Origin: Glycomyces sp. TRM65418
Lineage (GTDB): Bacteria; Actinomycetota; Actinomycetes; Mycobacteriales; Micromonosporaceae
Reading direction: 5' to 3'
Assembly (NCBI RefSeq): GCF_019710475.1
Contig: NZ_JAJFAX010000001.1
Location: 620,001-684,000 of the forward strand
Length of the DNA: 64,000 bases
Of this stretch, positions 19,001-60,700 are shown piece by piece. The stretch's first letter is position 1. Every line of letters starts with the position of its first letter. The notes under the pieces are model-generated. The model worked only from the letters and a program-made list of their open reading frames with translations. It ran no database searches and was not told the origin of the DNA. The translations under genes and the position numbers were made by a program.

Positions 19001-20828
19001 GCTCCTCGGAGACCTTGACGCCGAGGTGGCCCAGCACCGGCAGGGCCTCCGAGAGGCCGACGGGCTGGTCGAAGGCGTAGATCTTGAAGTGGACGTCGGC
19101 GTCGTCGCCGCCGCGGCGGAACAGCTGGAGCTCCATGTCGCCGGACTCGCGGAGCATCTCGAGTTTCGCGATGTCCTTGGCGGCGTCGATCGGCGAGTGC
19201 TCGGCCTTGTACGCGGCCGGGTAGGCGCCGGAGTAGGTCTGGTAGAGGTGGCGGGCCTGGCCCTCGCCGACGTGGTGGTCGAGCTGGAGGGCGAGGTCGG
19301 CGTCCCAGGAGCGGGTGGCGTCGGCGAGTTCGGCCTGGATCGCCTCGACGTCGACCGGCGGGTGGTCGGCGAACGGGTCGATGCGGACGACGAAGTGGAG
19401 GCGGGCGAGCACCGACTCGGTGACGCGGGCGTCGTAGTCGACGGCCGCGCCGTGGAGGCGGCGGCGCAGGATCTCCTCGATCTTCATCCGGTTCTCGGTG
19501 TTGTACCGGTCCCGGGGCAGGTAGACCAGGCAGGAGTAGAAGCGGCCGTAGACGTCCCGGCGGGCGAACAGGCGCAGGCGGCGGCGTCCGGCCAGGCGCA
19601 GCACGCCCATCGCGGTCGAGTACAGGTCGTCGGTGCGGGCCTGGAACAGCTCGTCGCGCGGGTAGGTCTCCAGGGCGGTGACCAGGTCTTTCCCGGAGTG
19701 GGAGGAGAGGGTGACGCCCGAGCGGGCGAGCACGTCCTGGACCTTGCGCCTGACGACGGGCAGCTCGGTGACCGAGGAGAGGTACGCGGCGGAGGTGAAC
19801 AGGCCGAGGAAGCGCAGCTCGCCGTCGGGTTCGCCGTTCGCGTCGAAGGTCTTGACGCCGATGTAGTCCATGAAGGACGTGCGGTGGACGGTGGAGCGGG
19901 CGTTGGACTTGGTGATGACCAGCAGGCGCTTCGCGCCGATCTGCGAGCGCGCGTCGGCGTTGAACGAGGCGATCGGCCGCGGCGCGGCCGGGGCCTTGCG
20001 CAGCAGGCCCAGGCCGGTCTCGGCGAGGGGCGTGAGCGCCTGGTCCTCGCCTTCGCCGGTGAGCTTGTATCGACGGAAGCCGAGGAACGTGAACTTGTCG
20101 TCGGCGAGCCAGCGCAGGAGTTCCACGGTGTCGTCGAGGTCCTTGGGGGGCACCGGCAGCGGGGCGGCGCCCTTGCCGCCCGAGGAGGCCTGGTCGAGTT
20201 CGTCGGCGATGGCGAGGGCCTTGGCGCGCATGGCCTGCCAGTCGGCGACGCACGCGCTCACGTCGGCGAGGACCGCGATGATCTCGGATTCGAGGGTCGC
20301 GAGGAACTCCGGGTCGGCGACCCGCTGCGTCTCGATGTGCATCCATGATTCGGCGTGGCCGCCGTCGGCGGGGGCCTCGAGCAGGGCGCCGTCCGCGTCG
20401 CGGCGGACCGGGACGATCGGGTGGACGAACACGGAGATGTCGATGCCGTGCTTGTTGAACATGCCGGTGAGGGAGTCCACGAGGAACGGGGAGTCGTCGC
20501 AGACGATGTCGACGCGGGTCGAGGAGGCGGCGTCGGGGCCTTCGGCGTCCTCGGGGCAGTCGAGTTCGAGGGCCACTTCGCCGGGCTTGCGGATCTCGGC
20601 CATGCGGCGGTGGTGGGCGGTGGTCTCGAGCAGCTGCTGGGCGCTGCGCCCGACGAGGTCGTCGTCGGCCACGAGGCTCCAGTAGAGCTCGACCAGTCTC
20701 GCCAGCGACTCGTCGGATCCGGCCAGGTCGGCCGCCTCGGTCAGGAGTTCCTCCCGGTCGGGGAGGGTCTCGCGGAACTCTTCGTCGCCGATGAACGCCA
20801 GCACGTCTCGATCTCCAGTCCGATTCAC
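15939..20828 (-). CDS. gdh: NAD-dependent glutamate dehydrogenase, large type
   Basis: This enzyme oxidises glutamate to 2-oxoglutarate and ammonium with NAD. At 1,629 residues it belongs to the 180-kDa class found in actinomycetes and proteobacteria. An N-terminal ACT-like regulatory half is followed by the catalytic core with ARGGLRWSDRKEDFRTEIL and TPVGAKGGFVLKR near residues 820-860 and the nucleotide-binding VVGIGDMAGDVFGNGML near 990. The start taken is GTG 20828, preceded by GAGGTGA; a second GTG at 20804 with GGAG is also possible. Its last 29 codons are duplicated downstream in a 101-bp repeat. Together with gluABCD in the same window it allows use of glutamate as carbon source. Confidence 0.95.
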   Translation of the reverse strand: MNRTGDRDVLAFIGDEEFRETLPDREELLTEAADLAGSDESLARLVELYWSLVADDDLVGRSAQQLLETTAHHRRMAEIRKPGEVALELDCPEDAEGPDAASSTRVDIVCDDSPFLVDSLTGMFNKHGIDISVFVHPIVPVRRDADGALLEAPADGGHAESWMHIETQRVADPEFLATLESEIIAVLADVSACVADWQAMRAKALAIADELDQASSGGKGAAPLPVPPKDLDDTVELLRWLADDKFTFLGFRRYKLTGEGEDQALTPLAETGLGLLRKAPAAPRPIASFNADARSQIGAKRLLVITKSNARSTVHRTSFMDYIGVKTFDANGEPDGELRFLGLFTSAAYLSSVTELPVVRRKVQDVLARSGVTLSSHSGKDLVTALETYPRDELFQARTDDLYSTAMGVLRLAGRRRLRLFARRDVYGRFYSCLVYLPRDRYNTENRMKIEEILRRRLHGAAVDYDARVTESVLARLHFVVRIDPFADHPPVDVEAIQAELADATRSWDADLALQLDHHVGEGQARHLYQTYSGAYPAAYKAEHSPIDAAKDIAKLEMLRESGDMELQLFRRGGDDADVHFKIYAFDQPVGLSEALPVLGHLGVKVSEERPYHIERADGTIHLHDFKLELPVATAEPIPQQRIRFENAFRAAWTGEAESDRFNELVITAALTWRQVVVLRALAKYLRQCGFVFSQDFIASTLGAYPEIAGNLVRLFEARFDPRVGADRDAAVARIDATLAEGLAEVPNLDADRILRAFLTLIRSTLRTSYFQRAASGRPKEYVAFKFDARSIDFLPRPRPMFEVFVYSPNFEGVHMRYGRVARGGLRWSDRKEDFRTEILGLVKAQEVKNTVITPVGAKGGFVLKRTAFADRAAFQAEGVARYREFISALLDITDNRDADNTVVPPPDVVRHDADDPYLVVAADKGTATFSDIANAVAAEYGFWLGDAFASGGSVGYDHKKMGITARGAWESVKRHFRAERLDTQSQDFTVVGIGDMAGDVFGNGMLLSEHIRLVAAFNHMHIFIDPNPVAAASYAERRRLFDLPRSTWADYDPALISAGGGVWERSAKSIPVSDEARTALGIDADVKDMTPPELIRAILTAPVDLLWNGGIGTYVKSAAQSHADAGDKANDAVRVNGDQLRCRVVGEGGNLGFTQLGRIEYAQSGGPDGRGGRCTTDFIDNSAGVDTSDHEVNIKILLRSAALTGRIDPASRNRLFMDMADAVADAVLADNYGQNMALANARRLNTRLLPVHIRLMKHLEKTVALDREIEGLPSDKQLKERIAAKGALTEPELAVLLSYVKIWAKRAVLDSALPDEDWTAPVLREYFPAPLRDPYADLMAEHPLRREIITTAVVGEAVNRAGTTFLFRIADETGADVVDVIRAYVIIRDAFGLPRLWQRIEALDNQAPQEAQVSGMLVIRRLLDRGVRWLVQHRRGHLDVAAEIERLRPGLAVLQPRLPQLLTDSEAVGFERFCDELEEQGMPAELARDASAPIFGFGLVDVVECARLMETDLGQTAEVYYGIAARVHLDELLNQISALPRTNRWQTLARSALRYDLYGAMAGLTTSVLQAKPGTDPAEAVDSWAERNAADLVRIHEALAEAGRSDEKLAVLSVSLRQIRSLVETDGD

Positions 20829-39082: not shown

Positions 39083-39108
39083 GTTACACGGGAAGCCGGC
39101 CGGGGTAT
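39083..39108 (+). promoter_or_regulatory. SigB/SigF-type promoter of SDR gene
   Basis: GTTA at 39083, 16-base spacer, GGGTAT at 39103; compare GTTT-N15-GGGTA in neighbouring units. It lies about 55 bp before the ATG. Confidence 0.55.
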
Positions 39109-39162
39109 CCGGCGGTCGGGCCCGGCCGAAGGGCGGCCGGGTGGAGCAGGAAGGACGAGCCA

Positions 39163-40008
39163 ATGGGCAAGCCGGGACAGCAGCAGGAACGACCGGGCTA
39201 CACCGAGGCGATGACTCCGGAGCCCAAGGACTCCATGGAGGGTTACGAGGGTCGCGGCCTCCTCAAGGACCGCCGGGCGCTCATCACGGGCGGCGACTCC
39301 GGGATCGGCCGGGCGGTCGCCGTCGCGTTCGCGAAGGAGGGCGCCGACGTCGCCATCGCCTACCTGGAGGAGCAGGAGGACGCCGAGCGCACCGCCGAAC
39401 TGGTCGAGGCCGAGCGCCGCCAGTGCGTCCTGCTGCCGGGCGACCTCGGGAACCGCGAGCACTGCCGAGAGGTCGTGGACCAGACGGTCAAGGGCCTCGG
39501 CGGGCTCGACGTGCTGGTGAACAACATCGCCTATCAGAAGCCGGCCGAGCGGCCCGAGGACATCAGCGACGAGCAGTGGGAGCACACGTTCAACATCAAC
39601 ATGCACAGCTTCCACCGGGTGACCAACGCCGCGCTCCCGCACATGGGCGAGGGCAGTGCGATCGTCAACTGCGCGTCGGTGAACGGCCTGCGGGGCAACA
39701 AGACCCTCATCGACTACTCGGCGACCAAGGGCGCGATCATCGCCTGGACGTACTCGATGGCGCAGGCGCTCGCGCCGCGCGGCATCCGCGTCAACTGCGT
39801 CGCCCCGGGTCCGGTGTGGACGCCGCTGATCCCGTCGACGCTCCCGGAGGACCATGTCGAGGGCTTCGGCGAGCAGGTGCCGATGGGCCGCCCGGCCGAG
39901 CCGGACGAACTGGCGCCCTCGTTCGTGTTCCTGGCCGCGAACCGGATGTCGTCGTACATCACCGGCGAGGTCATCGCCGCCCTCGGCGGCGAGACCATGC
40001 CGGACTGA
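39163..40008 (+). CDS. SDR oxidoreductase, general stress protein 39 type
   Basis: A 281-residue classical short-chain dehydrogenase with an N-terminal extension (residues 1-40, PGYTEAMTPEPKDSMEGYEG) that is typical of the Bacillus GSP39/YghA group. Cofactor motif ALITGGDSGIGRAVAVAFA, structural VLVNNIAYQKP (usual NNAG altered), and the catalytic Tyr-Lys in DYSATKGAIIAWTYSMA with an upstream Ser in NCASVNG. The start is ATG 39163. A SigB-type promoter precedes it, in keeping with a stress role. Confidence 0.9.
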   Translation: MGKPGQQQERPGYTEAMTPEPKDSMEGYEGRGLLKDRRALITGGDSGIGRAVAVAFAKEGADVAIAYLEEQEDAERTAELVEAERRQCVLLPGDLGNREHCREVVDQTVKGLGGLDVLVNNIAYQKPAERPEDISDEQWEHTFNINMHSFHRVTNAALPHMGEGSAIVNCASVNGLRGNKTLIDYSATKGAIIAWTYSMAQALAPRGIRVNCVAPGPVWTPLIPSTLPEDHVEGFGEQVPMGRPAEPDELAPSFVFLAANRMSSYITGEVIAALGGETMPD

Positions 40009-40020
40009 GCGTCCCGCGCG

Positions 40021-40054
40021 TTCGCGCCGCAGCCCGTGTCGGCTGCGGCGCGAA
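40021..40054. terminator. Terminator of the SDR gene
   Basis: TTCGCGCCGCAGCC (40021-40034) pairs perfectly with GGCTGCGGCGCGAA (40041-40054) across a six-base loop, 12 bp past the stop. Confidence 0.9.
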
Positions 40055-40056
40055 GT

Positions 40057-40153
40057 CGTGCGGCGTGCGGCGTCCGGCGTCCGGCGTCCGGCGTCCGGCG
40101 TCCGGCGTCCGGCGTCCGGCGTCCGGCGTCCGGCGTCCGGCGTCCGGCGTCCG
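40057..40153. repeat. Heptamer tandem repeat CGTCCGG
   Basis: Two variant units CGTGCGG at 40057 and 40064 are followed by eleven perfect CGTCCGG units (40071-40147) and a partial one. The tract begins three bases after a terminator hairpin. Seven-base units shift frame each time, so it is not coding. Confidence 0.95.
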
Positions 40154-40254
40154 AAGACTGTCGCACCCCTGTGTCGGGGTTGCGACCGGGGGCCGGCGAT
40201 GTCCGATTCGCCGGGACCCTCCGTTCACCTTCAAGCAGAGGCCGATCCGGACAG

Positions 40255-40290
40255 GGGCGGACCGGCGGGCCATGGCCCGCCGGTCCGCCC
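40255..40290. terminator. Bidirectional terminator, 36-bp palindrome
   Basis: GGGCGGACCGGCGGGC (40255-40270) pairs perfectly with 40275-40290 around CATG. It lies 13 bp from the end of the leftward DUF3618-like gene. Confidence 0.88.
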
Positions 40291-40303
40291 TCGCCGCGTC
40301 GCC

Positions 40304-40900
40304 TCAGCGGTGCATGAAGCGACGCACGCCCTTCTTGCGTCTCCCGCCCACGGCCGAAGAGGCGGAGCCGAGGAGGTCCTTCACCTCGCCCCAGCGGCGG
40401 TGGGCGGCCTTCCGCATGGCCTTGCGGCGCTTCGCGGCGGCCTTGGCCGTCGCTCTGCGGCGGCGCTCGCTCGCCTTGATGGCGTCCATCGCGGCCTGCC
40501 GGGCGGCGTCCTTCGTGGACTGGCGGTGCCCGCGGGCGATGCCCATCCCCACGATCGCCGCCGTCGCCGCGCCCACCGTCGCGACCGCGACCGTGAACGG
40601 GTGGCGGCGCACCGGGGCGAAGGGGCCGTGCGCGTGCGCGGCGTCCGGGTCGATCCCCAGGCGCTCGCGCAGCTGGATCACCGAGGCGTTGACCCGCTCA
40701 CGGGTCCGCTCGGCGTCCTGGCGGAGGTCGTCCGTGGACTTGCGCTGGTCCGCCTCCGCGTCCTCGATCGCCCAGTCGTGCTGGCGAACGAGGTTCTCCT
40801 CCTCCCGAGTCCGGTAATCCGGCGCCATCGGGGGAGAGGGCGCGAATCCGGCGCCCGGCGGAGCCGCCATCGGCGGCGGGACCGTCCAGCCACTGGTCAT
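40304..40900 (-). CDS. DUF3618-like membrane protein
   Basis: A 198-residue protein with a proline-rich start, a charged coiled-coil-like stretch (EADQRKSTDDLRQDAERTRE, RVNASVIQLRERLG) that matches DUF3618, one helix at residues about 110-130 (TVAVATVGAATAAIVGMGIA) and a strongly basic C-terminal tail rich in Lys and Arg. The ATG at 40900 overlaps the upstream stop (ATGA) and has GGGAGG before it. DUF3618 and holin-like genes usually travel together. The basic tail could bind nucleic acid or lipid head groups. Confidence 0.75.
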   Translation of the reverse strand: MTSGWTVPPPMAAPPGAGFAPSPPMAPDYRTREEENLVRQHDWAIEDAEADQRKSTDDLRQDAERTRERVNASVIQLRERLGIDPDAAHAHGPFAPVRRHPFTVAVATVGAATAAIVGMGIARGHRQSTKDAARQAAMDAIKASERRRRATAKAAAKRRKAMRKAAHRRWGEVKDLLGSASSAVGGRRKKGVRRFMHR

Positions 40901-41439
40901 CGGTCCATCCTCCCTTGCAGGGCCCGGGCGTCGTCCCGGGCGTGTTCCATCGTCTCCTCGGGGACCGGCGGCATGGCTCGACGCAGCATCGACCGGCCGA
41001 TCAGCGCCATGATGCCCGCGATGATGAACAGCGCGGCACCGACGATGAGGGCCGAAGCCCACGCCGGCATCATGAGCGCCAGCGCCAGGAGCGCCGCCCC
41101 CGCGAACGCGGCCCCGCCGTAGACCGCCATCACGCCGGCGACGGCGAACATGCCGCCGCCCGCGGCGCCCTTCTTGGCCTTGTCCGCGACCTCGCGGGCG
41201 GCCAGCTGGGCTTCCACGCGGGCCAGGTGCGCCACCTGCGACGTCAGGTCGCCGACGATCGCGCCGACGGAGCGGTCCTGGTCGTCCCAGTCGTGGCGGC
41301 CGCGGCCGCCGGTCCAGCCGCGCTTACGGCCCCGATCGGACCATTCTCGTGTGTCGTGGTCGGCATCGGCCCATTCGCCGCGGTGCTCGCGTTCGGCCTC
41401 GCGCATCGCCCGGGCCTCGGGGTCGTGTCGAACCTCCAT
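40897..41439 (-). CDS. Holin superfamily III-like (DUF1469) membrane protein
   Basis: The ATG at 41439 (GAGGTGAGGAC upstream) gives 180 residues: a charged, Asp/Arg-rich N-terminal 60 residues, then the Phage_holin_3_6 pattern IVGDLTSQVAHLARVEAQLA and two helices (FAVAGVMAVYGGAAFAGAAL and ALIVGAALFIIAGIMALIG). Despite the name, chromosomal members are not phage genes and occur in stress regulons. Middle gene of a three-gene leftward operon. Confidence 0.8.
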   Translation of the reverse strand: MEVRHDPEARAMREAEREHRGEWADADHDTREWSDRGRKRGWTGGRGRHDWDDQDRSVGAIVGDLTSQVAHLARVEAQLAAREVADKAKKGAAGGGMFAVAGVMAVYGGAAFAGAALLALALMMPAWASALIVGAALFIIAGIMALIGRSMLRRAMPPVPEETMEHARDDARALQGRMDR

Positions 41440-41462
41440 GTCCTCACCTCTCTCCACCGGGC

Positions 41463-41795
41463 TCAAGAGCGCCGCTTCAGGGCGCGCTCGAGCTCGGCCT
41501 TGTTCATCTTGGAACGGCCTTCGATGTTCTTTCGGCGGGCTTCCTCGTAAAGCTGGTCTTTGGTGCGGCCTTTGGGGCCGGAGTGGGACCGCTTGCCGCC
41601 TCGCTTCGAGGACGACATGTCCTTCGTCGAAGTGCGGCTCGCCGTCTTGGTCTCGCCCTTGCGGGCGCGTTCCTTGTTGACGGTGCGAGCGGCGATCTCC
41701 TCGGCTCGGTCCTCCTCGGTGCCGCGCTCCTTCGCCTGATCTCGGATGTGCCGGTATTGGCGTTCTTCCTTGTCAGTCCAGTGCTGCTGTGGCAT
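41463..41795 (-). CDS. Rho_N-like small basic protein ('plasmid stabilization' family)
   Basis: A hydrophilic 110-residue protein. The first half has KERGTEEDRAEEIAARTVN, the middle a Ser/Thr/Lys-rich linker, and the last 40 residues the SAP-like Rho N-terminal fold GRTKDQLYEEARRKNIEGRS followed by KMNKAELERAL, which binds nucleic acid in relatives. Database names such as plasmid stabilization protein are inherited and unsupported. It heads the operon with the holin-like and DUF3618-like genes and has a SigB-type promoter upstream. Confidence 0.78.
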   Translation of the reverse strand: MPQQHWTDKEERQYRHIRDQAKERGTEEDRAEEIAARTVNKERARKGETKTASRTSTKDMSSSKRGGKRSHSGPKGRTKDQLYEEARRKNIEGRSKMNKAELERALKRRS

Positions 41796-41846
41796 GGCCC
41801 CTCACCTCCACGGTGTCCGTTTTCGGCCAGGTCCGATGGGGATCGG

Positions 41847-41871
41847 GTTCCCCGCCCGGCTCGGCGGAAAC
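41847..41871 (-). promoter_or_regulatory. SigB/SigF-type promoter of the Rho_N/holin operon
   Basis: On the minus strand GTTT (41871-41868), 15-base spacer, GGGAAC (41852-41847). Spacing equals that of the P450 promoter on the other strand 23 bp away. Confidence 0.6.
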
Positions 41872-41893
41872 CTCGCGTACGGGCGCGGCGGCC

Positions 41894-41918
41894 GTTTCCG
41901 GTGGCAGACGGCGGGTAC
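41894..41918 (+). promoter_or_regulatory. SigB/SigF-type promoter of the P450 gene
   Basis: GTTT at 41894, exactly 15 bases, GGGTAC at 41913; the ATG is 28 bp downstream of the -10 box. Full match to the GTTT-N15-GGGTA consensus. Confidence 0.75.
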
Positions 41919-41945
41919 CCGGTCGCGAGCCGAGGGAGGGGACCC

Positions 41946-43364
41946 ATGGAAGACGCCGCACCGGTCGCGAGCAGGCACGAGACGATCCAGATCGGACTGC
42001 GGGCGATCCTGCCCGCGTTCGCGGGCGGGGCGGTCAAGCGACGCCGCGTGCCGATGGCGCTGGCCGAGCGCTTCCAGGCCGATCGGGCGGCCATCAGGCT
42101 GCTCACGCGCCTGCGGGAGCGGCACGGCCCCGGGCCGCTGCGGCTGCGCGTCCCCAAGCGCTCGGTGGCCGTGGTGCTCGCGCCCGGAGACGTGGGACGG
42201 CTGCTGCGGGAATCGCCCGAGCCGTTCACGCCCGACAGCGTGGAGAAGCACGCCGCGTTGGGCAAGTTCCAGCCGCACGGGGTGCTCATCTCGCGCGGGC
42301 CCGAGCGGGCCGCGCGCCGCAACTGGAACGAGGCCGTGCTCGAACAGCACCGGCCCTTGCACCACCTCGCCCCGGCACTGCTGCCGGTGCTGAACGAGGA
42401 GGTCGACCGGCTCACCGAGACCGTGGACCGGCGGCGCGAACTCGACTGGCGCCGGTTCGATCAGGCGTGGCAGCGGACCGTGCGGCTGCTCGTGTTCGGC
42501 GAGCCCGCTCGCGAGGACCGGGAGCTGATCGCCGCCCTCGACTCGCTGCGCCGCAGCGGCAACTGGGCGTATCTCGGCCGCCCGAGGACCCGCGCGCGTG
42601 CGGCCTTCGCGGCGCGGCTGCGCCGGGCCCTCGCGGAGGCCGGGCCGGGCACCCTGGCCGAGGCCATCCGCGACGAGGCGTCGAACGGCGCGGTGCATCC
42701 CGAAGACCAGGTGGCGCACTGGCTGTTCGCGTTCGACGCGGCCGGGATCGCCGTCGCGCGCACCCTCGCGGTCCTCGCCGTCCACCCCGGACACCGGCTG
42801 GCGGCGCTGAACGAGCTGGCCGCCGAGGACCCCGCCGAGCCGGCCGAGCTGCCGTTCCTGCGCGCCTGCGTGCTCGAGTCGCTCCGGCTCTGGCCGACCA
42901 CGCCGCTGATCCTGCGCGACAGCACCGCCGAGACCCGCTGGGGCGCGACACGCCTCCCCGCGGGCACCTCGTTCGTCGTCTACACGCCGCTGTTCCACCG
43001 GGACCCGGCGCGCCCGTACGCCGACCGGTTCGCCCCGGACATCTGGCTCGATGGCACGGCGCGGGAGGACCCCTCGCTCGTCCCGTTCAGCGGCGGGCCC
43101 GCGCGCTGCCCCGGCCGGAACCTGGCGCTCTTCTGCGCCACCGGCGCGCTCGCGCGGCTGCTGCGCGAACGCGAGTGGCGCCTGACCTCGCCGAGCCCGC
43201 TGTACACCGGCAGGCCGGCCCCGGCGACGTTGGACCACTTCGGCCTGGCGTTCCGTCCCGAGCCGGCCCGGCAGCCGCTGCTCGGCGCCGCCCCGCACGG
43301 GGATGCCAACCGGCACAGCACTTCCCGTGCAACAGGCACGCATACTTCCGCGGCCTCCGGGTAG
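41946..43364 (+). CDS. Cytochrome P450
   Basis: A 472-residue P450. The K-helix ExxR is in CVLESLRLWPTTPLILRDS (near residue 311), and the heme-binding loop PFSGGPARCPGRNLALF places the cysteine ligand near residue 388. The I helix reads FAFDAAGIAVARTL, so the usual acid-Thr pair for proton delivery is missing, as in P450s that rearrange peroxides or use peroxide. No ferredoxin or reductase gene is near. The ATG at 41946 follows GGAGGGG. A SigB-type promoter immediately upstream suggests stress induction. Substrate unknown. Confidence 0.9.
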   Translation: MEDAAPVASRHETIQIGLRAILPAFAGGAVKRRRVPMALAERFQADRAAIRLLTRLRERHGPGPLRLRVPKRSVAVVLAPGDVGRLLRESPEPFTPDSVEKHAALGKFQPHGVLISRGPERAARRNWNEAVLEQHRPLHHLAPALLPVLNEEVDRLTETVDRRRELDWRRFDQAWQRTVRLLVFGEPAREDRELIAALDSLRRSGNWAYLGRPRTRARAAFAARLRRALAEAGPGTLAEAIRDEASNGAVHPEDQVAHWLFAFDAAGIAVARTLAVLAVHPGHRLAALNELAAEDPAEPAELPFLRACVLESLRLWPTTPLILRDSTAETRWGATRLPAGTSFVVYTPLFHRDPARPYADRFAPDIWLDGTAREDPSLVPFSGGPARCPGRNLALFCATGALARLLREREWRLTSPSPLYTGRPAPATLDHFGLAFRPEPARQPLLGAAPHGDANRHSTSRATGTHTSAASG

Positions 43365-43459
43365 CCACTTTCGGCAAGCGAGGCTTGCGAGGGAATTCCT
43401 CCGGTGCGGCGCGGTCGGTAGTAGAGGGCTACCGCGTCGAGTCGGCGGGAAACACACGA

Positions 43460-43497
43460 GAACGGCGCTCCGGAGAATCCGTCCCGGAGCGCCGTTC
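43460..43497. terminator. Bidirectional terminator, P450/DUF4383
   Basis: GAACGGCGCTCCGG (43460-43473) pairs perfectly with CCGGAGCGCCGTTC (43484-43497) between convergent genes. Confidence 0.9.
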
Positions 43498-43508
43498 CAC
43501 GTCTCCCC

Positions 43509-44036
43509 TCAGCGCGCCGCGCCTCGGTTCGTCTCGCCGAAGTCGCCTTCGCCGCGGGCCTCGCTCTCCTTGGGGAGCGTGCGCGGCATCAACAGGCCGA
43601 GCAGGAGCACCAGGATGCCCAAGCCCAGGTGCAGCAGTGCGATCGGCCAGTTCGAGGGCAGGAAGTCCGCGGTGGAGGAGTCCGGGACGATGAGGCCGTA
43701 CAGGCCCAGGAGGGCGAAGAACACCCCGCCGGTGATCAGGTACCGCACCGAGGCGCCCACCATCCAGCCCATGATCAGACCGGTCACGCCGTAGACGAGG
43801 TGGAGGAGGTTGGTGAGGACCGAGACTTCGAAGACCCCGAAGAGCTCGGCGGTCGTGTCGTTCCCCGCGAAGCTGATCCCCGAGAAGCCCGGGGTGAACA
43901 GCGGGATGAAGCCCATCACGCCGAGGAGGAGGAAGAGCCATCCCGCCGCGGTCGCGCCCTGCTGGACGGCGGTGGTGCGGCGGCGCTCGGGTTCCCACCA
44001 ATGGTGGCCGGTGGTGGATCTCGGTTGCTCCTTCAT
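43509..44036 (-). CDS. DUF4383 membrane protein
   Basis: From the ATG at 44036 (GGGAGGG upstream) 175 residues: a polar start with HHWWEPERRR, then four helices (GWLFLLLGVMGFIPLF, VLTNLLHLVYGVTGLIMGWM, YLITGGVFFALLGLYGLIV, WPIALLHLGLGILVLLLGLL). The NLLHLVYGVTGL motif and the overall layout match DUF4383. Function unknown; family members are often stress- or dormancy-induced. A SigB-like promoter lies about 110 bp upstream, back to back with that of the transketolase gene. Confidence 0.83.
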   Translation of the reverse strand: MKEQPRSTTGHHWWEPERRRTTAVQQGATAAGWLFLLLGVMGFIPLFTPGFSGISFAGNDTTAELFGVFEVSVLTNLLHLVYGVTGLIMGWMVGASVRYLITGGVFFALLGLYGLIVPDSSTADFLPSNWPIALLHLGLGILVLLLGLLMPRTLPKESEARGEGDFGETNRGAAR

Positions 44037-44145
44037 CGTTCCCTCCCGTGGTTCGCCGGAGTAGAAGCGCACCGCCGCGCCCGCGTATGGGCATCCAATC
44101 GGGCGAGACGGCGCGCCGCGAGCCACTCGGACCCGCAGCGGAGGG

Positions 44146-44170
44146 ATACCCCTCAGGACCGCCGCGACAC
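44146..44170 (-). promoter_or_regulatory. SigB/SigF-type promoter of DUF4383 gene
   Basis: Minus strand GTGT (44170-44167), 15-base spacer, GGGTAT (44151-44146). It is divergent from and four bases away from the transketolase promoter. Confidence 0.55.
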
Positions 44171-44173
44171 CCG

Positions 44174-44198
44174 GTTTCGCGCCCCTGCCCGGGGGTAG
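44174..44198 (+). promoter_or_regulatory. SigB/SigF-type promoter of transketolase gene
   Basis: GTTT at 44174, 15 bases, GGGTAG at 44193; the GTG start is 48 bp downstream of the -10 box. Confidence 0.7.
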
Positions 44199-44245
44199 CC
44201 CACGCATTCAGGAGCCTGAACCCGTGAACCCCAGCAGGAGGAGCC

Positions 44246-46087
44246 GTGAGCGTCATCGAGGCACGCACCAGCGAGATCGCCGAACTCGGGCAGCAGTTGC
44301 GGGTGGACGCGGTGCGGGCGTCGGCCCGGGCCGGCTCGGGGCACCCCACCTCGTCCATGTCCGCCGCCGACCTCATGGCCGCACTGCTGGCCGGACACCT
44401 GCACTACGACTTCGAGCACCCGCACCTGCCGGGGAACGACCGGCTCGTGTTCTCCAAGGGACACGCCTCGCCGCTGCTGTACGCGATGCTGCACGCGGCG
44501 GGCGTCATCGACGAGGAGCATCTGCTCACCTACCGCCGGCTCGGTTCGGACCTGGAAGGGCACCCCACGCCGCGACTGCCGTGGGTCGACGTCGCCACGG
44601 GCTCCCTCGGGCAGGGGCTCCCGATCGGCGTCGGCATGGCGCTCGGGGCCCGCCTCACCGGCTCGCCCGCCCGGGTGTGGGTACTGTGCGGGGACGGCGA
44701 GATCGCCGAGGGCTCCGTGTGGGAGGCCTTCGCGGCCGCCGACGACTTCGGCCTCGGGAACCTGTGCGCGATCATCGACGTCAACCGGCTCGGCCAGACC
44801 GGGCCCACCCGCTACGGATGGGACACCACCAAGTACGCCGCCCAGATCGGCTCCTTCGGCTGGCAGGTCATCGAGATCGACGGCCACGACCCGGCTCAGA
44901 TCGACCGGGCGTACGCCCAGGCCGAGGCCGAGAACTCCCGGCCGACCGCGATCCTGGCGCGCACCAAGAAGGGCAAGGGCGTCGCCGCCGCCGAGGACAA
45001 GGAGGGCCTGCACGGCAAGCCGCTCGACGAGGCCGAGAAGGCCGTCGTCGAGCTGGGGGGCGTCCGCGACGCCCGCGTCCAGGTCAAGGGACCGCGGTCG
45101 AGCGAGCCGCTGCCGGCGCGCCCCGCGCAGCCCGTCACCCTGCCGTCGTTCCCGGTCGGCACCAGCGCGGCCACCAGGGACGGCTTCGGCGCGGCCCTGG
45201 AAGCGCTCGGCGAGGCCAACCCGAACGTGGTGGTCGTCGACGGCGAGGTCGCCGACTCCACCCGGACGGCCGAGTTCGCGAAGGCCTTCCCGAACCGCTT
45301 CTTCGAGTGCTACATCGCCGAGCAGCAGATGATCGGCACGGCCGTGGGGCTGCAGACGCAGGGGTGGATCCCCTACGCCTCCACGTTCGCCGCGTTCCTC
45401 ACCCGAGCGCAGGACTTCCTGCGCATGGCCGCCATCAGCGGCGCGGACCTGCGCGTCGTGGGCTCGCACGCGGGCGTCTCGATCGGCCAGGACGGGCCGA
45501 GCCAGATGGGCCTCGAAGACCTCGCCATGATGCGCCTGCTGTGGCGCAGCGTGGTGCTGTACCCGTGCGACGCCAACCAGTGCGCGCAGCTGACGGCCAC
45601 CATGGCCGAGCTGCCGGGCATCAGCTACCTGCGGACGACGCGCGCCGAGACGCCGGTGATCTACCGGTCCGACGAGCAGTTCCCCGTGGGCGGCAGCCGC
45701 ACGCTCGTCAGCTCGCCGCACGACAAGGTCACGATCGTCGCCGCCGGGATCACCGTCTCGGAGAGCCTGACCGCCGCCGAGCGCCTCGCGGACGAGGGCA
45801 TCCCGGTGCGCGTCATCGACGCCTACTCGGTCAAGCCGCTCGACGCCGCGACGATCCGCCAGGCCGCCGCCGACACCGGCCGCCTGCTCACCGTCGAGGA
45901 CCACTGGCCCGTCGGCGGGCTCGGCGACGCCGTCCTCGAAGCCGTCGCCGGGCAGGTCCCCGACATGCGGTACACGAAGCTCGCCGTCCGCGGCATGCCC
46001 GGCTCCGCCGGGACGAAGGAGCAGCTCGCCAACGCCGGCATCGACGCGGCCGCGATCATTCGGGCCGCGCAGCGCCTGGTCCCGTGA
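44246..46087 (+). CDS. Transketolase (short, stress-linked paralogue)
   Basis: A 613-residue thiamine-diphosphate enzyme with both halves in one chain: the TPP motif VLCGDGEIAEGSVWE through IIDVNRL, LVFSKGHASPLLY, and the C-terminal pyrimidine domain with ECYIAEQQMIGTAVGL and HAGVSIGQDGPSQMGLED. It is shorter than housekeeping transketolases (about 660-700) and resembles TKTL-type and DXS-like variants. GTG start at 44246 behind AGGAGGAG. No pentose-phosphate genes adjoin it; a SigB-type promoter does, so it may rebalance sugar phosphates under stress. Confidence 0.88.
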   Translation: MSVIEARTSEIAELGQQLRVDAVRASARAGSGHPTSSMSAADLMAALLAGHLHYDFEHPHLPGNDRLVFSKGHASPLLYAMLHAAGVIDEEHLLTYRRLGSDLEGHPTPRLPWVDVATGSLGQGLPIGVGMALGARLTGSPARVWVLCGDGEIAEGSVWEAFAAADDFGLGNLCAIIDVNRLGQTGPTRYGWDTTKYAAQIGSFGWQVIEIDGHDPAQIDRAYAQAEAENSRPTAILARTKKGKGVAAAEDKEGLHGKPLDEAEKAVVELGGVRDARVQVKGPRSSEPLPARPAQPVTLPSFPVGTSAATRDGFGAALEALGEANPNVVVVDGEVADSTRTAEFAKAFPNRFFECYIAEQQMIGTAVGLQTQGWIPYASTFAAFLTRAQDFLRMAAISGADLRVVGSHAGVSIGQDGPSQMGLEDLAMMRLLWRSVVLYPCDANQCAQLTATMAELPGISYLRTTRAETPVIYRSDEQFPVGGSRTLVSSPHDKVTIVAAGITVSESLTAAERLADEGIPVRVIDAYSVKPLDAATIRQAAADTGRLLTVEDHWPVGGLGDAVLEAVAGQVPDMRYTKLAVRGMPGSAGTKEQLANAGIDAAAIIRAAQRLVP

Positions 46088-46095
46088 GAAGTGGC

Positions 46096-46119
46096 GTAAT
46101 CCCTGCGAACGCTGGGTAC
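46096..46119 (+). promoter_or_regulatory. Possible SigB/SigF-type promoter of CBS gene
   Basis: GGGTAC at 46114 is a good -10 box; the -35 region (GTAA, 14-base spacer) is weak. Only tentative. Confidence 0.35.
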
Positions 46120-46183
46120 CCGAACGATACTCATGGGGACGGCGCGATGAAGGAGCAGTGACGCGATGAAGGAGAGGAACAGC

Positions 46184-46600
46184 ATGGCGACCGCACGCGA
46201 TCTGATGCACCCGGGCGTGACCTGCGTGCAGAGCAACGACACCGCCGGGAACGCGGCGCGGCTCATGGCCGAGCTGGACGTCGGCGCGCTGCCGATCTGC
46301 GGCGCCGAGGACAACAAGATCAAGGGCATGGTCACCGACAGGGACCTCGTGCTCGAGGTCATGGCCACCGGCCAGGACCCGGAGACGTTCACCGTCGACC
46401 GGCTCCCTCAAGGCCACCTGATCCTCGCGGACGCGAACGAGGACGCCGAGAACGTCATCGCCAAGATGAAGGAGCACCAGATCAACCGGGTGCCCGTCAT
46501 CGACGAGGGCAGGCTCGTCGGCATCATCTCGATCAGGGACGTCTCGCTCCGGATGCCGCAGTCGGTCACCGGGGACGTCGTGGACTCGATCAAGTCCTGA
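46184..46600 (+). CDS. CBS-domain pair protein, HRP1-like
   Basis: A 138-residue protein made of two CBS domains: residues about 6-60 (ATARDLMHPGVTCVQSNDTA, IKGMVTDRDLVLEVMA) and 75-135 (NRVPVIDEGRLVGIISIRDV). Such pairs bind adenine nucleotides; the mycobacterial HRP1 is hypoxia-induced. The ATG at 46184 is chosen for the AAGGAGAGG before it. The sequence GCGATGAAGGAG occurs twice just upstream (46144 and 46163), with a four-codon MKEQ frame in the first copy. Confidence 0.88.
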   Translation: MATARDLMHPGVTCVQSNDTAGNAARLMAELDVGALPICGAEDNKIKGMVTDRDLVLEVMATGQDPETFTVDRLPQGHLILADANEDAENVIAKMKEHQINRVPVIDEGRLVGIISIRDVSLRMPQSVTGDVVDSIKS

Positions 46601-46729
46601 CATCGGCCCCAGGGCCCGAAGACCACCGGGGGGTGGAGCGCCGTCGCGGCATCGCCGCGGCGGCGCTGTCTTCGTGCGCACCGCCTGGCCGACCGCTCCC
46701 CGATGGACGCCTGCTCGTGGAGGACCGCT

Positions 46730-47410
46730 TCACGCGGCCGTGCCGTGCCGCAGCATCTCGGCGGCGTGGCGCAGGTCCACGAGGAACTCCGCGAACGCGT
46801 CCCTGCGGTCGGATTCGCGCAGCCGCGCCACCGATTCCGGCCGCATGGTCACCATGACCCGCAGGTTCCGGCGCAGCTCGGGCGCGGCCAGGAGGTGGAC
46901 CACGCCGCGGTGGGCGCTCACCTGGAACTCGGCCCCGAGCAGCGAGTGCGCCGCCGTCCCGCCCAGGCAGATCACGAGTTCCGGGTCGATCGTGTTCAAC
47001 TCGGCGAGCAGCCACGGCCGGCAGGCCTCCCGCTCGCCGCGGGAGGGCTTGAGCCGCACCCGACGCCCGACCGACGCACCGTGCGTCGTGGTCCCGACCC
47101 GCACGAACTTGTAATGCTTGACCGCATAGGTCCGGTACACCTGGGCGGGGTCGATCCCGGCCTGTTCGAGCGCGCCGTCGAGCAGCTCCCCCGCCTCGTC
47201 GGCGTACGGCCTGCCCTCGTGGTCCTCGACCGAGCCGGGCTGCTCCCCCACGACGACGACCCGGGACCGCTCGTCGCCCGCCCCGAACACGGTCCGCTCG
47301 GCGGCCTGGAACAGGGGGCAGCCCTCGCAGTCCGAGGCGGCCTCCCGCAGTCGTTCCAGGCCGCCCGCCGGCGGCACGAAGCGCTGGGCGCCCGTGGTCC
47401 GCGTCGTCAT
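46730..47410 (-). CDS. UdgX-like uracil-DNA glycosylase homologue with altered active site
   Basis: A 226-residue family-4/UdgX fold starting at ATG 47410 (GAGGAGGACCGAC upstream). The four iron-sulfur cysteines are kept (C28, C31, C130, C149) with VVVGEQPGSVEDHEGRPY as motif A. The loop that carries the covalent His in UdgX (RRIHKxP type) reads RRVRLKPSRGE, and the HPSS motif near the C terminus reads MRPESVARL at 189-197. Both catalytic histidines are therefore replaced. It may bind DNA or damage without excising uracil. It diverges from a hemerythrin gene. Confidence 0.8.
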   Translation of the reverse strand: MTTRTTGAQRFVPPAGGLERLREAASDCEGCPLFQAAERTVFGAGDERSRVVVVGEQPGSVEDHEGRPYADEAGELLDGALEQAGIDPAQVYRTYAVKHYKFVRVGTTTHGASVGRRVRLKPSRGEREACRPWLLAELNTIDPELVICLGGTAAHSLLGAEFQVSAHRGVVHLLAAPELRRNLRVMVTMRPESVARLRESDRRDAFAEFLVDLRHAAEMLRHGTAA

Positions 47411-47451
47411 GTCGGTCCTCCTCGGTCTCACGTGGAGAGACGAGTACCCGC

Positions 47452-47476
47452 GTTTGCCCAGCACTACCCCGGGTAC
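47452..47476 (+). promoter_or_regulatory. SigB/SigF-type promoter of hemerythrin gene
   Basis: GTTT at 47452, 15 bases, GGGTAC at 47471; the ATG is 42 bp beyond the -10 box. On the other strand a GGGTAC (47449-47444) could serve the UdgX-like gene, but its -35 is poor. Confidence 0.72.
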
Positions 47477-47517
47477 GCCCCACCGACCGCACCGAGCCGA
47501 TCACATCTGGAGGACCG

Positions 47518-48084
47518 ATGGCGGCTGCCGAGCAGAACACCGACCTGATCGAAGTGATCCTCAAGGACCACCGCGAAGTCGAGGCGGCCTTCGTGGAACT
47601 GGAAGAGCGCACCGGAGATCCCCGGGCCCGCAAGGACCTCGTCGACCACGTGATCGCCGAGCTGGTCCGCCACTCCGTGGCCGAGGAGCAGTTCATGTAC
47701 CCCGCGGCGAGGTCGCGCCTGCCCGACGGCGACGACATCGTCGACCACGAGCTCCAGGAGCACGCCGAGGCCGAAGAGGTCATGAAGCGGCTCGAAGGGC
47801 TCGGCCCCGACGACCCGCAGTTCGAGCCGCTCCTCAAGCAGCTCATGGACGACATCCGCCACCACATCTCCGAGGAGGAGGGCGATCTGCTGCCGCGGCT
47901 CAAGGCGGCCTGTGACCGCAAGGAACTCCAAGAGCTCGGGCACAAGGTCGCGGTGGCCAAGGAGTTCGCGCCGACCCGGCCCCACCCGCACGCCCCCGAC
48001 ACGCCGCCGGGGAACCTCATCCTCGGCCCCGGCGTGGGCTTCATCGACAAGATCCGCGACACTCTGAGCCATCGCGAAGTCTGA
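47518..48084 (+). CDS. Hemerythrin HHE-domain protein
   Basis: A 188-residue four-helix di-iron protein. Ligand-bearing segments are ILKDHREVEAAFVELEE, LVRHSVAEEQFMYPAA, HELQEHAEAEEVMK and IRHHISEEEGDLLPRL, as in actinobacterial HHE proteins linked to peroxide and oxygen stress. The last 45 residues are a proline/histidine-rich tail (PTRPHPHAPD). ATG 47518 has GGAGG seven bases upstream. A SigB-type promoter precedes it. Confidence 0.9.
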   Translation: MAAAEQNTDLIEVILKDHREVEAAFVELEERTGDPRARKDLVDHVIAELVRHSVAEEQFMYPAARSRLPDGDDIVDHELQEHAEAEEVMKRLEGLGPDDPQFEPLLKQLMDDIRHHISEEEGDLLPRLKAACDRKELQELGHKVAVAKEFAPTRPHPHAPDTPPGNLILGPGVGFIDKIRDTLSHREV

Positions 48085-48092
48085 TACGCGAA

Positions 48093-48126
48093 CCGGAGCG
48101 GCGGGCCCTTCGGCCCGCCGCTCCGG
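48093..48126. terminator. Bidirectional terminator, hemerythrin/sigma factor
   Basis: CCGGAGCGGCGGGCC (48093-48107) pairs perfectly over 15 bp with 48112-48126 around a CTTC tetraloop. Confidence 0.93.
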
Positions 48127-48224
48127 CGTGGTGCTCCGTATGTGTCGTCAATGTGCTCCGCCGGTTCCCCGCGGGCCGCGTGAACGGCGTCAGCGGAGGA
48201 TCGGCACCGGGCAATCGGTCCTCA

Positions 48225-49022
48225 TCAGACGGATGACTGTTCCAGTCCGTCCCGCAGGTCCTCCAAGGTGCGGTGGAGGAGCCGGGAGACGTGCATCTGG
48301 GAGATGCCCACTTCCTCGGCGATCTGCGTCTGCGTCATGTCGCCGTAGTACCGCAGCGCCAGAATCTTGCGCTCCCGCTGCGGCAGCTCCTGAATGAGCG
48401 GCACCAGCGACTCGTGGTTCTCCACGAGTTCGAGCGCGGCGTCCTCCTCGCCCACGGACTCGGCGAGCGTCGTGCGCTCCTCGTCCGCGAACGGCGGCTC
48501 GTCGAGGGAGACCGCACGGTAGGCCTGCCGGGCCTCGTAGCCCTCCTGCACCTCCTCGACGGTGATGCCGAGGTGCTCGGCCATCTCCTCGTCGGTCGGC
48601 GGCCGACCCAGCCGCTGCGAGAGCTCGCCGCCTGCCTGGTTCAGCGAGATGCGCAGTTCTTGGAGGCGACGCGGCACGCGCATCGGCCAGCTCGTGTCGC
48701 GGAAGTGCCGGCGCACTTCGCCCATGACCGTCGGAACCGCATAGGAGAGGAACTCCGCCCCCTGGTCGGGGTCGAAGCGGTCGACCGCGTGGATGAGGCC
48801 CACCGAAGCGACCTGCACGAGGTCGTCCTTGGCGATGCCCTTGCCGGCGAATCGCTGCGCGATGTGCTCGGCCAGCGGGAGGTGCCCGGTGACCAGTCGT
48901 TCTCGGATCTCCGCTCGTCGCGGATCGCCCTCGTCGTACGAGGCCATCTCGCGGAACAGCGGGGCCAAGTGGCCGTATTCGTCCGAACCTTGGCGCTTGC
49001 CTTCTGATCTTTTGTCTGCCAT
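48225..49022 (-). CDS. SigB/SigF-type RNA polymerase sigma factor
   Basis: A 265-residue group-3 sigma factor. Region 2 runs LVTGHLPLAEHIAQRFAGKG to FDPDQGAEFLSYAVPTVMGE; the following MRVPRRLQELRISLNQ starts region 3; region 4 is QTQIAEEVGISQMHVSRLLH. ATG 49022 is chosen with GGAGGGCGATCGC before it. No anti-sigma (RsbW-like) or anti-anti-sigma gene adjoins it, which is unusual. It borders a 10-kb set of genes with GTTT-N15-GGGTA promoters and is the natural candidate to read them. Confidence 0.92.
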   Translation of the reverse strand: MADKRSEGKRQGSDEYGHLAPLFREMASYDEGDPRRAEIRERLVTGHLPLAEHIAQRFAGKGIAKDDLVQVASVGLIHAVDRFDPDQGAEFLSYAVPTVMGEVRRHFRDTSWPMRVPRRLQELRISLNQAGGELSQRLGRPPTDEEMAEHLGITVEEVQEGYEARQAYRAVSLDEPPFADEERTTLAESVGEEDAALELVENHESLVPLIQELPQRERKILALRYYGDMTQTQIAEEVGISQMHVSRLLHRTLEDLRDGLEQSSV

Positions 49023-49271
49023 GCGATCGCCCTCCTGCCCTAGTGGACATCGGTTGAAGCATGTTGCCCCTTTCGGAGCCTGACGCTTCTCATTGTAGGA
49101 CTGTTTGCGGGCTGCGGGCAAGAATGAAGAGGTAAATTCCGGGAGGCAAAGGGGACATCGTAACTTTGCGGGACACATACCCCGATATGTTGTTATAACA
49201 GGTCATGAGGATGCCCATTCGAGGCCATACCTAAACCTCCAGCTGTGCCGCCCGTCACTGTTATCTGCAAC
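49023..49271. promoter_or_regulatory. Leader of the sigma factor gene with TGTTATAACA palindrome
   Basis: This AT-richer stretch holds a perfect 10-bp palindrome TGTTATAACA at 49191-49200 and, on the minus strand, GGGTAT (49183-49178) with an imperfect upstream box. Autoregulation is possible but not clear. Confidence 0.35.
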
Positions 49272-60176: not shown

Positions 60177-60700
60177 CGTCGCTCCTCCAGCTGTTTGCAA
60201 CTGACGCAGAGGGTAGCCGACGGGAACGCGGCCAACCGCGCCGCCGGGATCGCTTTACCGCACTTCTCACAGAATCCGTACCCGCCCTCGTCGAGGCGCT
60301 CGAGCGCGTGGCTGACCTGGCGGATGCGCTCGGAGATCGCTCCCGCCACGGCGACCTCGTGCTCGTGCTCGACGGTCTTGGAACCGGAGTCGATCTGGTC
60401 GTCCCCGGCGGTGTCGCTCAGCCGCTCGCGCTGGGCGAGCGCGATCGAGTCGGTGTAACGCTGCTGCTCGTCGATCAGCTCGTCGAGCCGCTCCTTCAGG
60501 GCGGCGCGCAGCTCGGCCTGCTCGGTTTCGGTGCGCAACTGCTGGACCTCGGTCTCCTCGGCGACGGCCGGTTCGGGCTTCGCGGCCTTCACCGCCTTCT
60601 TGGCGGCCGGTTTCACTCCGCTCTCGGACGCCGGCTTCGCGGTCTTCTTCGCCGCCGCCTTCTTCGCGGCCTGCTTCTGGGTCTTCTTCGCTGGACTCAT
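60173..60700 (-). CDS. TraR/DksA-type zinc-finger protein with histone-like tail
   Basis: A 175-residue protein from ATG 60700. The first 45 residues are Lys/Ala/Pro-rich (KKTQKQAAKKAAAKKTAKPA), like histone H1 tails. A coiled coil (residues about 50-110) and the C4 zinc finger FCEKCGKAIPAARLAAFPSA with CVSCK at the end follow. DksA relatives enter the RNA polymerase secondary channel. The conserved DxxDxA tip of DksA is not clear here. It is translationally linked to lspA. Confidence 0.88.
   Translation of the reverse strand: MSPAKKTQKQAAKKAAAKKTAKPASESGVKPAAKKAVKAAKPEPAVAEETEVQQLRTETEQAELRAALKERLDELIDEQQRYTDSIALAQRERLSDTAGDDQIDSGSKTVEHEHEVAVAGAISERIRQVSHALERLDEGGYGFCEKCGKAIPAARLAAFPSATLCVSCKQLEERR

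What the first reader, a model, noticed from the sequence alone, without database searches (positions are those of the whole stretch)
39083..49200. A 10-kb stress island read from GTTT-N15-GGGTA promoters, with its sigma factor at the edge
Between the ara operon and the mutase gene, GTTT-N15-GGGTAC or a close form lies upstream of the P450 (41894-41918), Rho_N/holin operon (41847-41871, minus), transketolase (44174-44198), DUF4383 (44146-44170, minus) and hemerythrin (47452-47476) genes; weaker forms precede the SDR and CBS genes. The -10/-35 spacing is exactly 15 in the five best cases. This consensus is known for SigB/SigF-type sigma factors, and one is encoded at 48225-49022. The gene set (GSP39-like SDR, HHE protein, CBS pair, holin-like/DUF3618, P450, UdgX-like, short transketolase) looks like one regulon gathered in one place. 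No anti-sigma gene is present locally.
Basis: partly seen in the sequence, partly recalled or inferred. Interest (0 to 1): 0.75.

Follow-up and report, generated by a model that had tools for sequence, protein, structure and literature searches.

The report
Stress-promoter island beside its sigma gene
In a soil bacterium of the genus Glycomyces, a run of about ten neighbouring genes, probably for stress protection, carries copies of one on-switch sequence that related species keep nearly letter for letter, next to a gene for the kind of protein that reads such switches; the kind of switch is known, but so compact a gathering is a good test case for how bacteria bring co-regulated genes together.

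Summary
All five best boxes are at the stated coordinates with 15-base spacers. A matrix built only from relatives' boxes finds 6 strong sites in the 10.2-kb interval, each 28-110 bp before a gene, none in the other 53.8 kb of the window and 3 in 400 kb of sampled genome. Nineteen related loci (18 Glycomyces, one MAG) keep much of the gene set beside a SigB/SigF-type sigma gene. At the transketolase gene -35 and -10 are invariant in 18 of 18 while surrounding DNA is about 60% alike. In other genera homologues of three of the genes are scattered yet often carry the box. So this is very probably a SigB/SigF-type regulon gathered around an autoregulated sigma gene. The kind is known: the M. smegmatis SigF regulon clusters near sigF. 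Different here: no anti-sigma gene nearby, although two sigma paralogues elsewhere in the genome sit beside MEDS-HATPase genes, and back-to-back promoters with a 3-bp gap. Some island genes, above all the CBS genes, mostly lack a box. Which of three sigmas reads the boxes is untested.

The parts
39083..39108 (+). SigB-type box GTTA-N16-GGGTAT before the SDR gene
   Evidence: score 15.2; 10 of 10 loci examined keep GGGTA with a degenerate -35
39163..40008 (+).
40304..40900 (-).
   Evidence: 0 families; no own box in 8 of 8 called leaders
40897..41439 (-). Holin-X family (PF07332) protein, second gene of the operon
41463..41795 (-).
   Evidence: 0 families
41847..41871 (-). SigB-type box GTTT-N15-GGGAAC before the RhoN-like operon
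   Evidence: score 16.6; GTTT-N15/16-GGGAA in 16 of 16 loci examined
41894..41918 (+). SigB-type box GTTT-N15-GGGTAC before the P450 gene
   Evidence: score 19.5; box in 4 of 4 loci with P450
41946..43364 (+). Cytochrome P450 (PF00067), optional island gene
   Evidence: present in 4 of 20 loci
43509..44036 (-). DUF4383 membrane protein
44146..44170 (-). SigB-type box GTGT-N15-GGGTAT before DUF4383, back to back with the transketolase box (3-bp gap between -35 tetramers)
   Evidence: score 17.6; 12 of 12 loci examined; gap 3 in 9 of 13
44174..44198 (+). SigB-type box GTTT-N15-GGGTAG before the transketolase gene
   Evidence: score 18.3; exact motif (N15 or N16) in 18 of 18 loci
44246..46087 (+). 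Short transketolase (NF004559, 916.7 bits, over cut-off)
46094..46119 (+). Weak box GCGT-N16-GGGTAC before the CBS gene
   Evidence: score 11.8; box >=12 in only 6 of 24 CBS leaders
46166..46600 (+). CBS-pair protein
46730..47410 (-). UdgX-like uracil-DNA glycosylase superfamily protein
   Evidence: TIGR03914 171.7 bits, below cut-off 189.95
47444..47469 (-). Weak box ending GGGTAC before UdgX, overlapping the hemerythrin box on the other strand
   Evidence: score 9.7; GTGT-type boxes in 4 of 8 loci with UdgX, GGGTAY alone in the other 4
47452..47476 (+). SigB-type box GTTT-N15-GGGTAC before the hemerythrin gene
   Evidence: score 16.4; exact in 12 of 18 loci, 1 degenerate, 5 none
47518..48084 (+). 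Hemerythrin HHE protein
48225..49022 (-). SigB/SigF/SigG-family sigma factor, 265 aa
49092..49121 (-). Housekeeping-like element TTGCCC-N18-TACAAT before the sigma gene
   Evidence: such an element in 13 of 18 loci (8% in shuffles)
49211..49236 (-). Degenerate SigB-type box GTTT-N16-GGGCAT before the sigma gene (candidate autoregulation)
   Evidence: score 12.4; box at the same place in 10 of 18 loci (0.5% in shuffles)

Best explanation
This is a general-stress regulon of the actinobacterial SigB/SigF kind, gathered into a 10-kb island next to an autoregulated sigma gene in Glycomyces. Proposed working: a housekeeping-like promoter gives basal sigma; when a signal frees or raises SigB-type sigma, RNA polymerase carrying it starts transcription at each box, including the one before the sigma gene, which closes a positive loop. 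The products (transketolase, SDR, hemerythrin, P450, UdgX-like and small membrane proteins; catalase-like and DUF2267 proteins in some relatives) fit redox, desiccation and DNA-damage protection. The back-to-back transketolase/DUF4383 promoters, 3 bp apart, probably cannot be occupied at once, so the two genes would share initiation. Shown: boxes, conservation, enrichment, synteny, paralogues. Inferred: transcription from the boxes, stress induction, autoregulation, and which of three sigma paralogues is the main reader.
For: Enrichment. Footprint: -35/-10 column identity 1.00/1.00 at transketolase and DUF4383 against 0.59-0.68 around them. Sigma and island side by side in 19 related loci. Boxed leaders 89 of 147 inside against 0 of 73 outside the island (score >=15; the matrix was trained on boxes of these same genes, so the inside figure is partly circular). 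Box before the sigma gene in 10 of 18. Sigma over the SigBFG cut-off. Box genes elsewhere in the genome include CsbD, PRC-barrel, YetF and LigD-polymerase genes. Same forms, including GTTT-N16-GGGCA listed for sigF, in the M. smegmatis SigF regulon (PMC4694148 Table 1).
Against: No transcription data. The sigma box is GGGCA in this genome, and 8 of 18 loci show no sigma box. Five species lack both hemerythrin and sigma boxes. CBS genes are boxed in only 6 of 24, and second CBS genes present in five relatives have none. Several genes with boxes elsewhere in the genome are not typical stress genes. Paralogous sigmas have the same core recognition helix. Homologues of the sigma in other genera have no box (0 of 20).
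Confidence: 0.85

Rival explanations
1. The boxes are real SigB-type promoters but are read mainly by the two MEDS-linked paralogues (C32 and C33); the island sigma is a minor or specialised copy that merely lies near them.
For: The helix SQMHVSRLL is identical in all 43 sigmas aligned, and the 30-residue stretch around region 2.4 differs at only one or two places among the three own sigmas. Clade L007-L009, L011, L012 lacks the sigma and hemerythrin boxes but keeps the transketolase box, and the RhoN-operon and DUF4383 boxes where those genes were found. Cross-recognition among nine SigB homologues is shown in S. coelicolor (PMC8346170).
Against: 13 non-island sigma loci of Glycomyces have 3 boxes in 248 kb, against 91 in 153 kb for the islands of 19 relatives (training boxes included). 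A box precedes the island sigma in 10 of 18 loci.
Confidence: 0.3
2. The cluster is plain inherited synteny and the boxes are individually selected; nearness to the sigma gene has no function.
For: In other genera homologues of transketolase (8 of 11), SDR (10 of 28) and the RhoN-like gene (7 of 24) carry boxes without this island, so membership in the regulon does not need the cluster. Second CBS genes in five islands carry no box.
Against: Box density is raised around SigB-type sigma genes in other genera (16 in 377 kb against 2 in 390 kb around the mutase gene, one-sided p 0.006; reversed-sequence control 0 and 4; at the strictest threshold 7 against 2, p 0.11, not significant). Of seven island genes with no counterpart in the window, six carry boxes.
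Confidence: 0.35
3. The sequences are not sigma promoters but sites of another DNA-binding regulator, or a compositional accident.
For: No expression data; GGG-rich words are common in high-GC DNA.
Against: Two-part motif with fixed spacing and orientation, invariant across species at transketolase, 28-110 bp before starts, absent before the flanking mutase gene (0 of 18), and of the same forms as SigF promoters listed for M. smegmatis.
Confidence: 0.04

Closest known systems
Mycobacterium smegmatis SigF regulon and its cluster near sigF (MSMEG_1758-1804)
   Same: Same box forms (GTTT-N15/16-GGGTA, GGGAA, GGGCA; GTGT), a P450 and hemerythrin genes among SigF-dependent genes, 28 Table 1 rows (in the part I read) within MSMEG_1758-1804, and sigF (MSMEG_1804) itself listed with GTTT-N16-GGGCA (PMC4694148: passages; section 9 part 1 of 2)
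   Different: There sigF is co-transcribed with its anti-sigma gene rsbW (PMC7693655, passages) and its listed box is 1001 bp upstream; here no anti-sigma gene lies nearby and the box stands about 200 bp before the sigma gene. Gene content seems to overlap only partly; most M. smegmatis entries are unnamed and were not compared.
Streptomyces coelicolor SigB homologues (nine) and their promoters
   Same: Family, promoter type (GTTT or GNNT -35, GGG-A -10), several paralogues with overlapping specificity, sigH autoregulated and sigB partly self-dependent (PMC8346170, passages and section 8)
   Different: Those sigB and sigH genes lie in operons with rsb/ush regulators; no comparable gathering of targets is mentioned in what I read.
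Bacillus subtilis SigB general stress response
   Same: Promoter consensus GTTTAA-N12-14-GGG(A/T)A(A/T); housekeeping plus SigB promoters on the sigma operon (as told in PMC8346170)
   Different: Bacillus has one SigB, controlled by the RsbW/RsbV partner switch; the operon layout is recalled, not looked up.

Membership tests
SigB/SigF/SigG sigma family (TIGR02980) | Score over the curated cut-off | tested here: met
   289.3 bits against 234.35
Mycobacterial-type SigF (PRK07122, NF005514) | Score over the curated cut-off | tested here: not met
   340.2 bits against 372: do not name it SigF
Bacillus-type SigB equivalog (TIGR02941) | Score over the curated cut-off | tested here: not met
   176.2 bits against 315
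SigB/SigF-type promoter | GTTT/GNNT, 14-16 base spacer, GGG(T/A)A | tested here: met
   Six sites >=15 and weaker ones before the sigma, CBS and UdgX genes
SigB/SigF-type regulon | Transcription depends on the sigma factor | not testable with these tools
   No expression data for this organism
Autoregulated sigma gene | Own-type promoter before the sigma gene, shown to be active | tested here: inconclusive
   Box in 10 of 18 loci; GGGCA form in the window. Activity cannot be tested here
Partner-switch (RsbW/RsbV) module | Anti-sigma HATPase gene beside the sigma gene | tested here: not met
   No PF13581 match in the window; no MEDS-type match among called genes of the 19 island loci. But the identical sigma copy at the mutase locus of G. 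arizonensis is followed by a MEDS-HATPase-like and a STAS-like gene

The most novel reading that the evidence does not exclude
An autoregulated sigma copy that no longer sits beside an anti-sigma gene has, in steps, drawn a once scattered stress regulon into one island around itself. New genes tend to be kept there when they carry or gain its box, and nearness to the sigma gene speeds or sharpens induction. The back-to-back promoters would make the transketolase/DUF4383 pair compete for polymerase at one shared site.
Probability: 0.18. Interest if true: 0.65.

Novelty: new member of a known kind. Interest (0 to 1): 0.45.

Why it matters
It is an unusually clean natural case of a sigma regulon collected next to a sigma gene of the right type, with promoters readable base by base in about twenty species, other genera where homologues of some of the same genes are scattered but often boxed, and sister sigma copies in the same genus that did not gather targets. 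That makes it possible to test why co-regulated but separately transcribed genes cluster. It also suggests that small proteins of unknown role (DUF4383, RhoN-like, Holin-X, DUF2267) are general-stress proteins.

Tried and rejected
Rejected: the GTTT-N14-GGGTA match at 60193 as a member; it lies in the zinc-finger end of a DksA/TraR-type gene and is letter-identical in 8 of the 9 relatives whose hits were shown in the capped list. Rejected: a structured-RNA reading; Rfam found 0 matches in the window at gathering scores. Rejected: calling the sigma SigF or SigB (cut-offs not met). Little result from papers: Glycomyces with 'sigma factor' and 'regulon' found 1 unrelated paper; clustering of regulons, 31 papers, 12 listed, nothing on point in the listing; 'MEDS domain' occurred in none of the 12 listed of 434 papers; one further search on SigF-dependent genes gave 5 papers, of which I read passages of one.

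Limits: the gene caller is my own codon-usage script. It called no genes in L048 and L081, missed the sigma gene in L013 and the RhoN-like gene in L226, and called few genes in L230, so counts based on it are approximate. The matrix was trained on relatives' boxes found with patterns that I chose, so inside-island counts for relatives are not independent. In one search, three L017 leaders before the sigma gene were counted as inside because no mutase gene is on that contig, and the L015 sigma (cut by the contig end) was not scored; one search scored the sigma upstream in 18 of 20 loci for the same reasons. One search was an earlier version that stopped with an error.

Sampling: one search was given 12 transketolase loci (11 scored), 28 SDR loci, 25 RhoN-like loci (one, L141, is of the same genus and is left out of my 7 of 24), 27 mutase loci and 27 sigma loci (20 scored; matches beginning beyond residue 25 were dropped); homologues further down the lists were not given. 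The 20 sigma regions are about every fifth row of the list, with short contigs skipped and a few picks shifted; two of them (L249, L251) I already knew to lie near a RhoN-like gene: without them 12 boxes remain of 16.

Full report
What was checked. The window lies at C1:620001-684000 of a 5.09-Mb, 37-contig genome. The sigma protein is up to 94% identical to Glycomyces orthologues, and 30 of the 32 loci found with it are Glycomyces, so I treat the organism as a Glycomyces; the record itself is unnamed. Three are exact GTTT-N15-GGGTA; the RhoN-operon box is GTTT-N15-GGGAAC and the DUF4383 box is GTGT-N15-GGGTAT.

More than chance. In the window the exact N15 pattern occurs 3 times against 0.02 expected. 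In the own genome GTTT-N14-16-GGGTA occurs 15 times, its reversal 7 times. By my addition over the 21 genomes the totals are 384 and 177. A weight matrix made from 84 boxes of relatives, without the window, gives 6 sites of score 15 or more in the island, none in the rest of the window and 3 in 400 kb of sampled genome. All 6 lie 28-110 bp before the start of a gene.

Conservation. The related-loci scan returned 32 loci. Nineteen of them hold much of the island next to a close sigma orthologue; 16 of the 19 show it between the mutase and the ara kinase gene, the other three are cut or lack one of these. Gene content varies: P450 in 4 of 20 loci with the window, UdgX in 8. Upstream of transketolase the exact motif is present in 18 of 18 (17 relatives and the window); DUF4383 has GTGT-N15-GGGTA in 12 of 12; the RhoN-like operon has GTTT-N15/16-GGGAA in 16 of 16; SDR has a degenerate -35 with GGGTA in 10 of 10; hemerythrin has the exact motif in 12 of 18. 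Controls: the mutase gene 0 of 18, the ara kinase gene 2 of 17 loose matches. Column identity at transketolase is 1.00 in -35 and -10, 0.64 in the spacer and 0.59 elsewhere; for hemerythrin it is 0.69, 0.78, 0.53 and 0.48. Each promoter tends to keep its own variant across species (GTTT/GGGTA, GTGT/GGGTA, GTTT/GGGAA, GTTA-like/GGGTA; mostly N15, N16 in 9 of the 10 sigma boxes), which suggests selected strengths rather than drift around one consensus (inference).

Island logic. Counting called transcription-unit leaders in the 20 loci, 89 of 147 inside the island have a box of score 15 or more, against 0 of 73 outside; at score 12 it is 101 of 147 against 3 of 73. The inside figure is partly circular, since the matrix was trained on these relatives. 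Of seven island genes without a counterpart in the window six carry boxes: DUF2267-like in L002, L004, L014 and L019, a second SDR and a catalase-like gene in L014; the exception is an alcohol dehydrogenase-like gene in L017 (the DUF2267 family was confirmed for the L019 gene; catalase and dehydrogenase named from sequence by recall). A second hemerythrin gene in L004 is boxed too. Against this, five relatives (L014-L017, L019) have a second CBS gene with no box; CBS genes as a whole are boxed in 6 of 24 and DUF3618 in 0 of 8. Some of these may be read from the promoter of the gene before them (inference).

The sigma gene. Ten of 18 loci have a box starting 198-220 bp before the sigma start (shuffles 0.5%) and 13 of 18 have a TTG-N-TA housekeeping-like element about 100 bp before it (shuffles 8%). 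In this window the box reads GTTT-N16-GGGCAT. GTTT-N16-GGGCA is the form listed for sigF in M. smegmatis (PMC4694148, Table 1). Clade L007, L008, L009, L011, L012 lacks both the sigma box and the hemerythrin box.

Promoter geometry. The -35 tetramers of the divergent transketolase and DUF4383 promoters are 3 bp apart in 9 of 13 loci, 4 in one, and 15 to 23 in three. Two polymerases should not fit there together (inference). The hemerythrin box and the weak UdgX box overlap on opposite strands in this window.

Regulators. The own genome holds three SigBFG proteins over cut-off. The two others are flanked by proteins with a MEDS sensory domain and a HATPase_c_2 domain (Pfam run on two of the three); the island sigma has no HATPase_c_2 match within the window. 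Seven paralogue loci of relatives show the MEDS neighbours as well; four others (L026, L027, L029, L030) show none. The core of region 4.2 (SQMHVSRLL) is identical in all 43 sigmas aligned, and the stretch around region 2.4 differs at one or two places among the three own sigmas, so overlapping specificity is expected. In G. arizonensis an identical sigma copy at the mutase locus is followed by a MEDS-HATPase-like gene and a STAS-like gene (named from sequence), while the island copy lies at a contig end.

Origin. In other genera of the family (as the tool groups them) transketolase homologues carry a box in 8 of 11, SDR in 10 of 28, RhoN-like in 7 of 24, the mutase in 1 of 27 and sigma homologues in 0 of 20. 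One outside genome (G033) has SDR, a catalase-like gene and transketolase close together, each boxed, with a RhoN-like gene that is not boxed; its only sigma match at the threshold used lies about 2 Mb away. Around 20 sampled SigB-type sigma genes of other genera there are 16 boxes in 377 kb, against 2 in 390 kb around the mutase gene (one-sided p 0.006; reversed-sequence control 0 and 4; at the strictest threshold 7 against 2, p 0.11). The window's island has 5.9 per 10 kb, the islands of relatives 6.0 (training boxes included), the 13 other Glycomyces sigma loci 0.12. So regulon membership of some genes is probably older than the island, and gathering is weak elsewhere and extreme here (inference).

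Comparison. The kind is known. The M. smegmatis SigF regulon uses the same boxes and 28 Table 1 rows (in part 1 of section 9, the part I read) fall in MSMEG_1758-1804, next to sigF; that table also lists a P450 and hemerythrin genes. In S. coelicolor nine SigB homologues cross-recognise promoters (PMC8346170, passages and section 8). PMC7693655 was seen in passages only. I found no paper on such an island in Glycomyces; the search was one query in an open-access library.

Verdict. 'Its sigma factor' is likely, but shared readership is open. Novelty is modest; the value lies in how testable the system is.

Noticed in passing
window 40057-40153: Tandem array of about 14 copies of the heptamer CGTCCGG between the convergent SDR and DUF3618-like genes.
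   Followed up: no
window 60193-60216: A GTTT-N14-GGGTA match, letter-identical in 8 of the 9 relatives shown in a capped list, lies inside the C4 zinc-finger end of a DksA/TraR-type gene: coding conservation, not a promoter.
   Followed up: partly
L054 6065-9397; L055 6937-8798: The two other SigB-type sigma genes of this genome are flanked by MEDS-HATPase genes (two at C32, one at C33), an arrangement seen at seven paralogue loci of relatives; likely sensor anti-sigma factors.
   Followed up: partly
L013 10001-12208 and L015 1-756: G. arizonensis has two copies of the island-type sigma with no difference in the tree, one beside the mutase gene with MEDS-HATPase-like and STAS-like genes, one at the island.
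   Followed up: partly
L228, L229: In two other genera a sigma gene 47% identical to the C32 copy lies near boxed genes: RhoN-like in L228, hemerythrin in L229, and others named only by eye; hints at repeated gathering. The RhoN-like gene of L229 is not boxed.
   Followed up: partly
L058 16995-17020; L052 2975-2999 and 4054-4079; L053 3017-3042: Boxes elsewhere in the genome (scores 13.9 to 20.5) precede a CsbD gene, PRC-barrel and YetF genes and a LigD-polymerase gene, typical SigB/SigF-type targets by recall; other box hits precede less typical genes.
   Followed up: partly
window 15939-20804: A 1621-aa large NAD-glutamate dehydrogenase gene.
   Followed up: no
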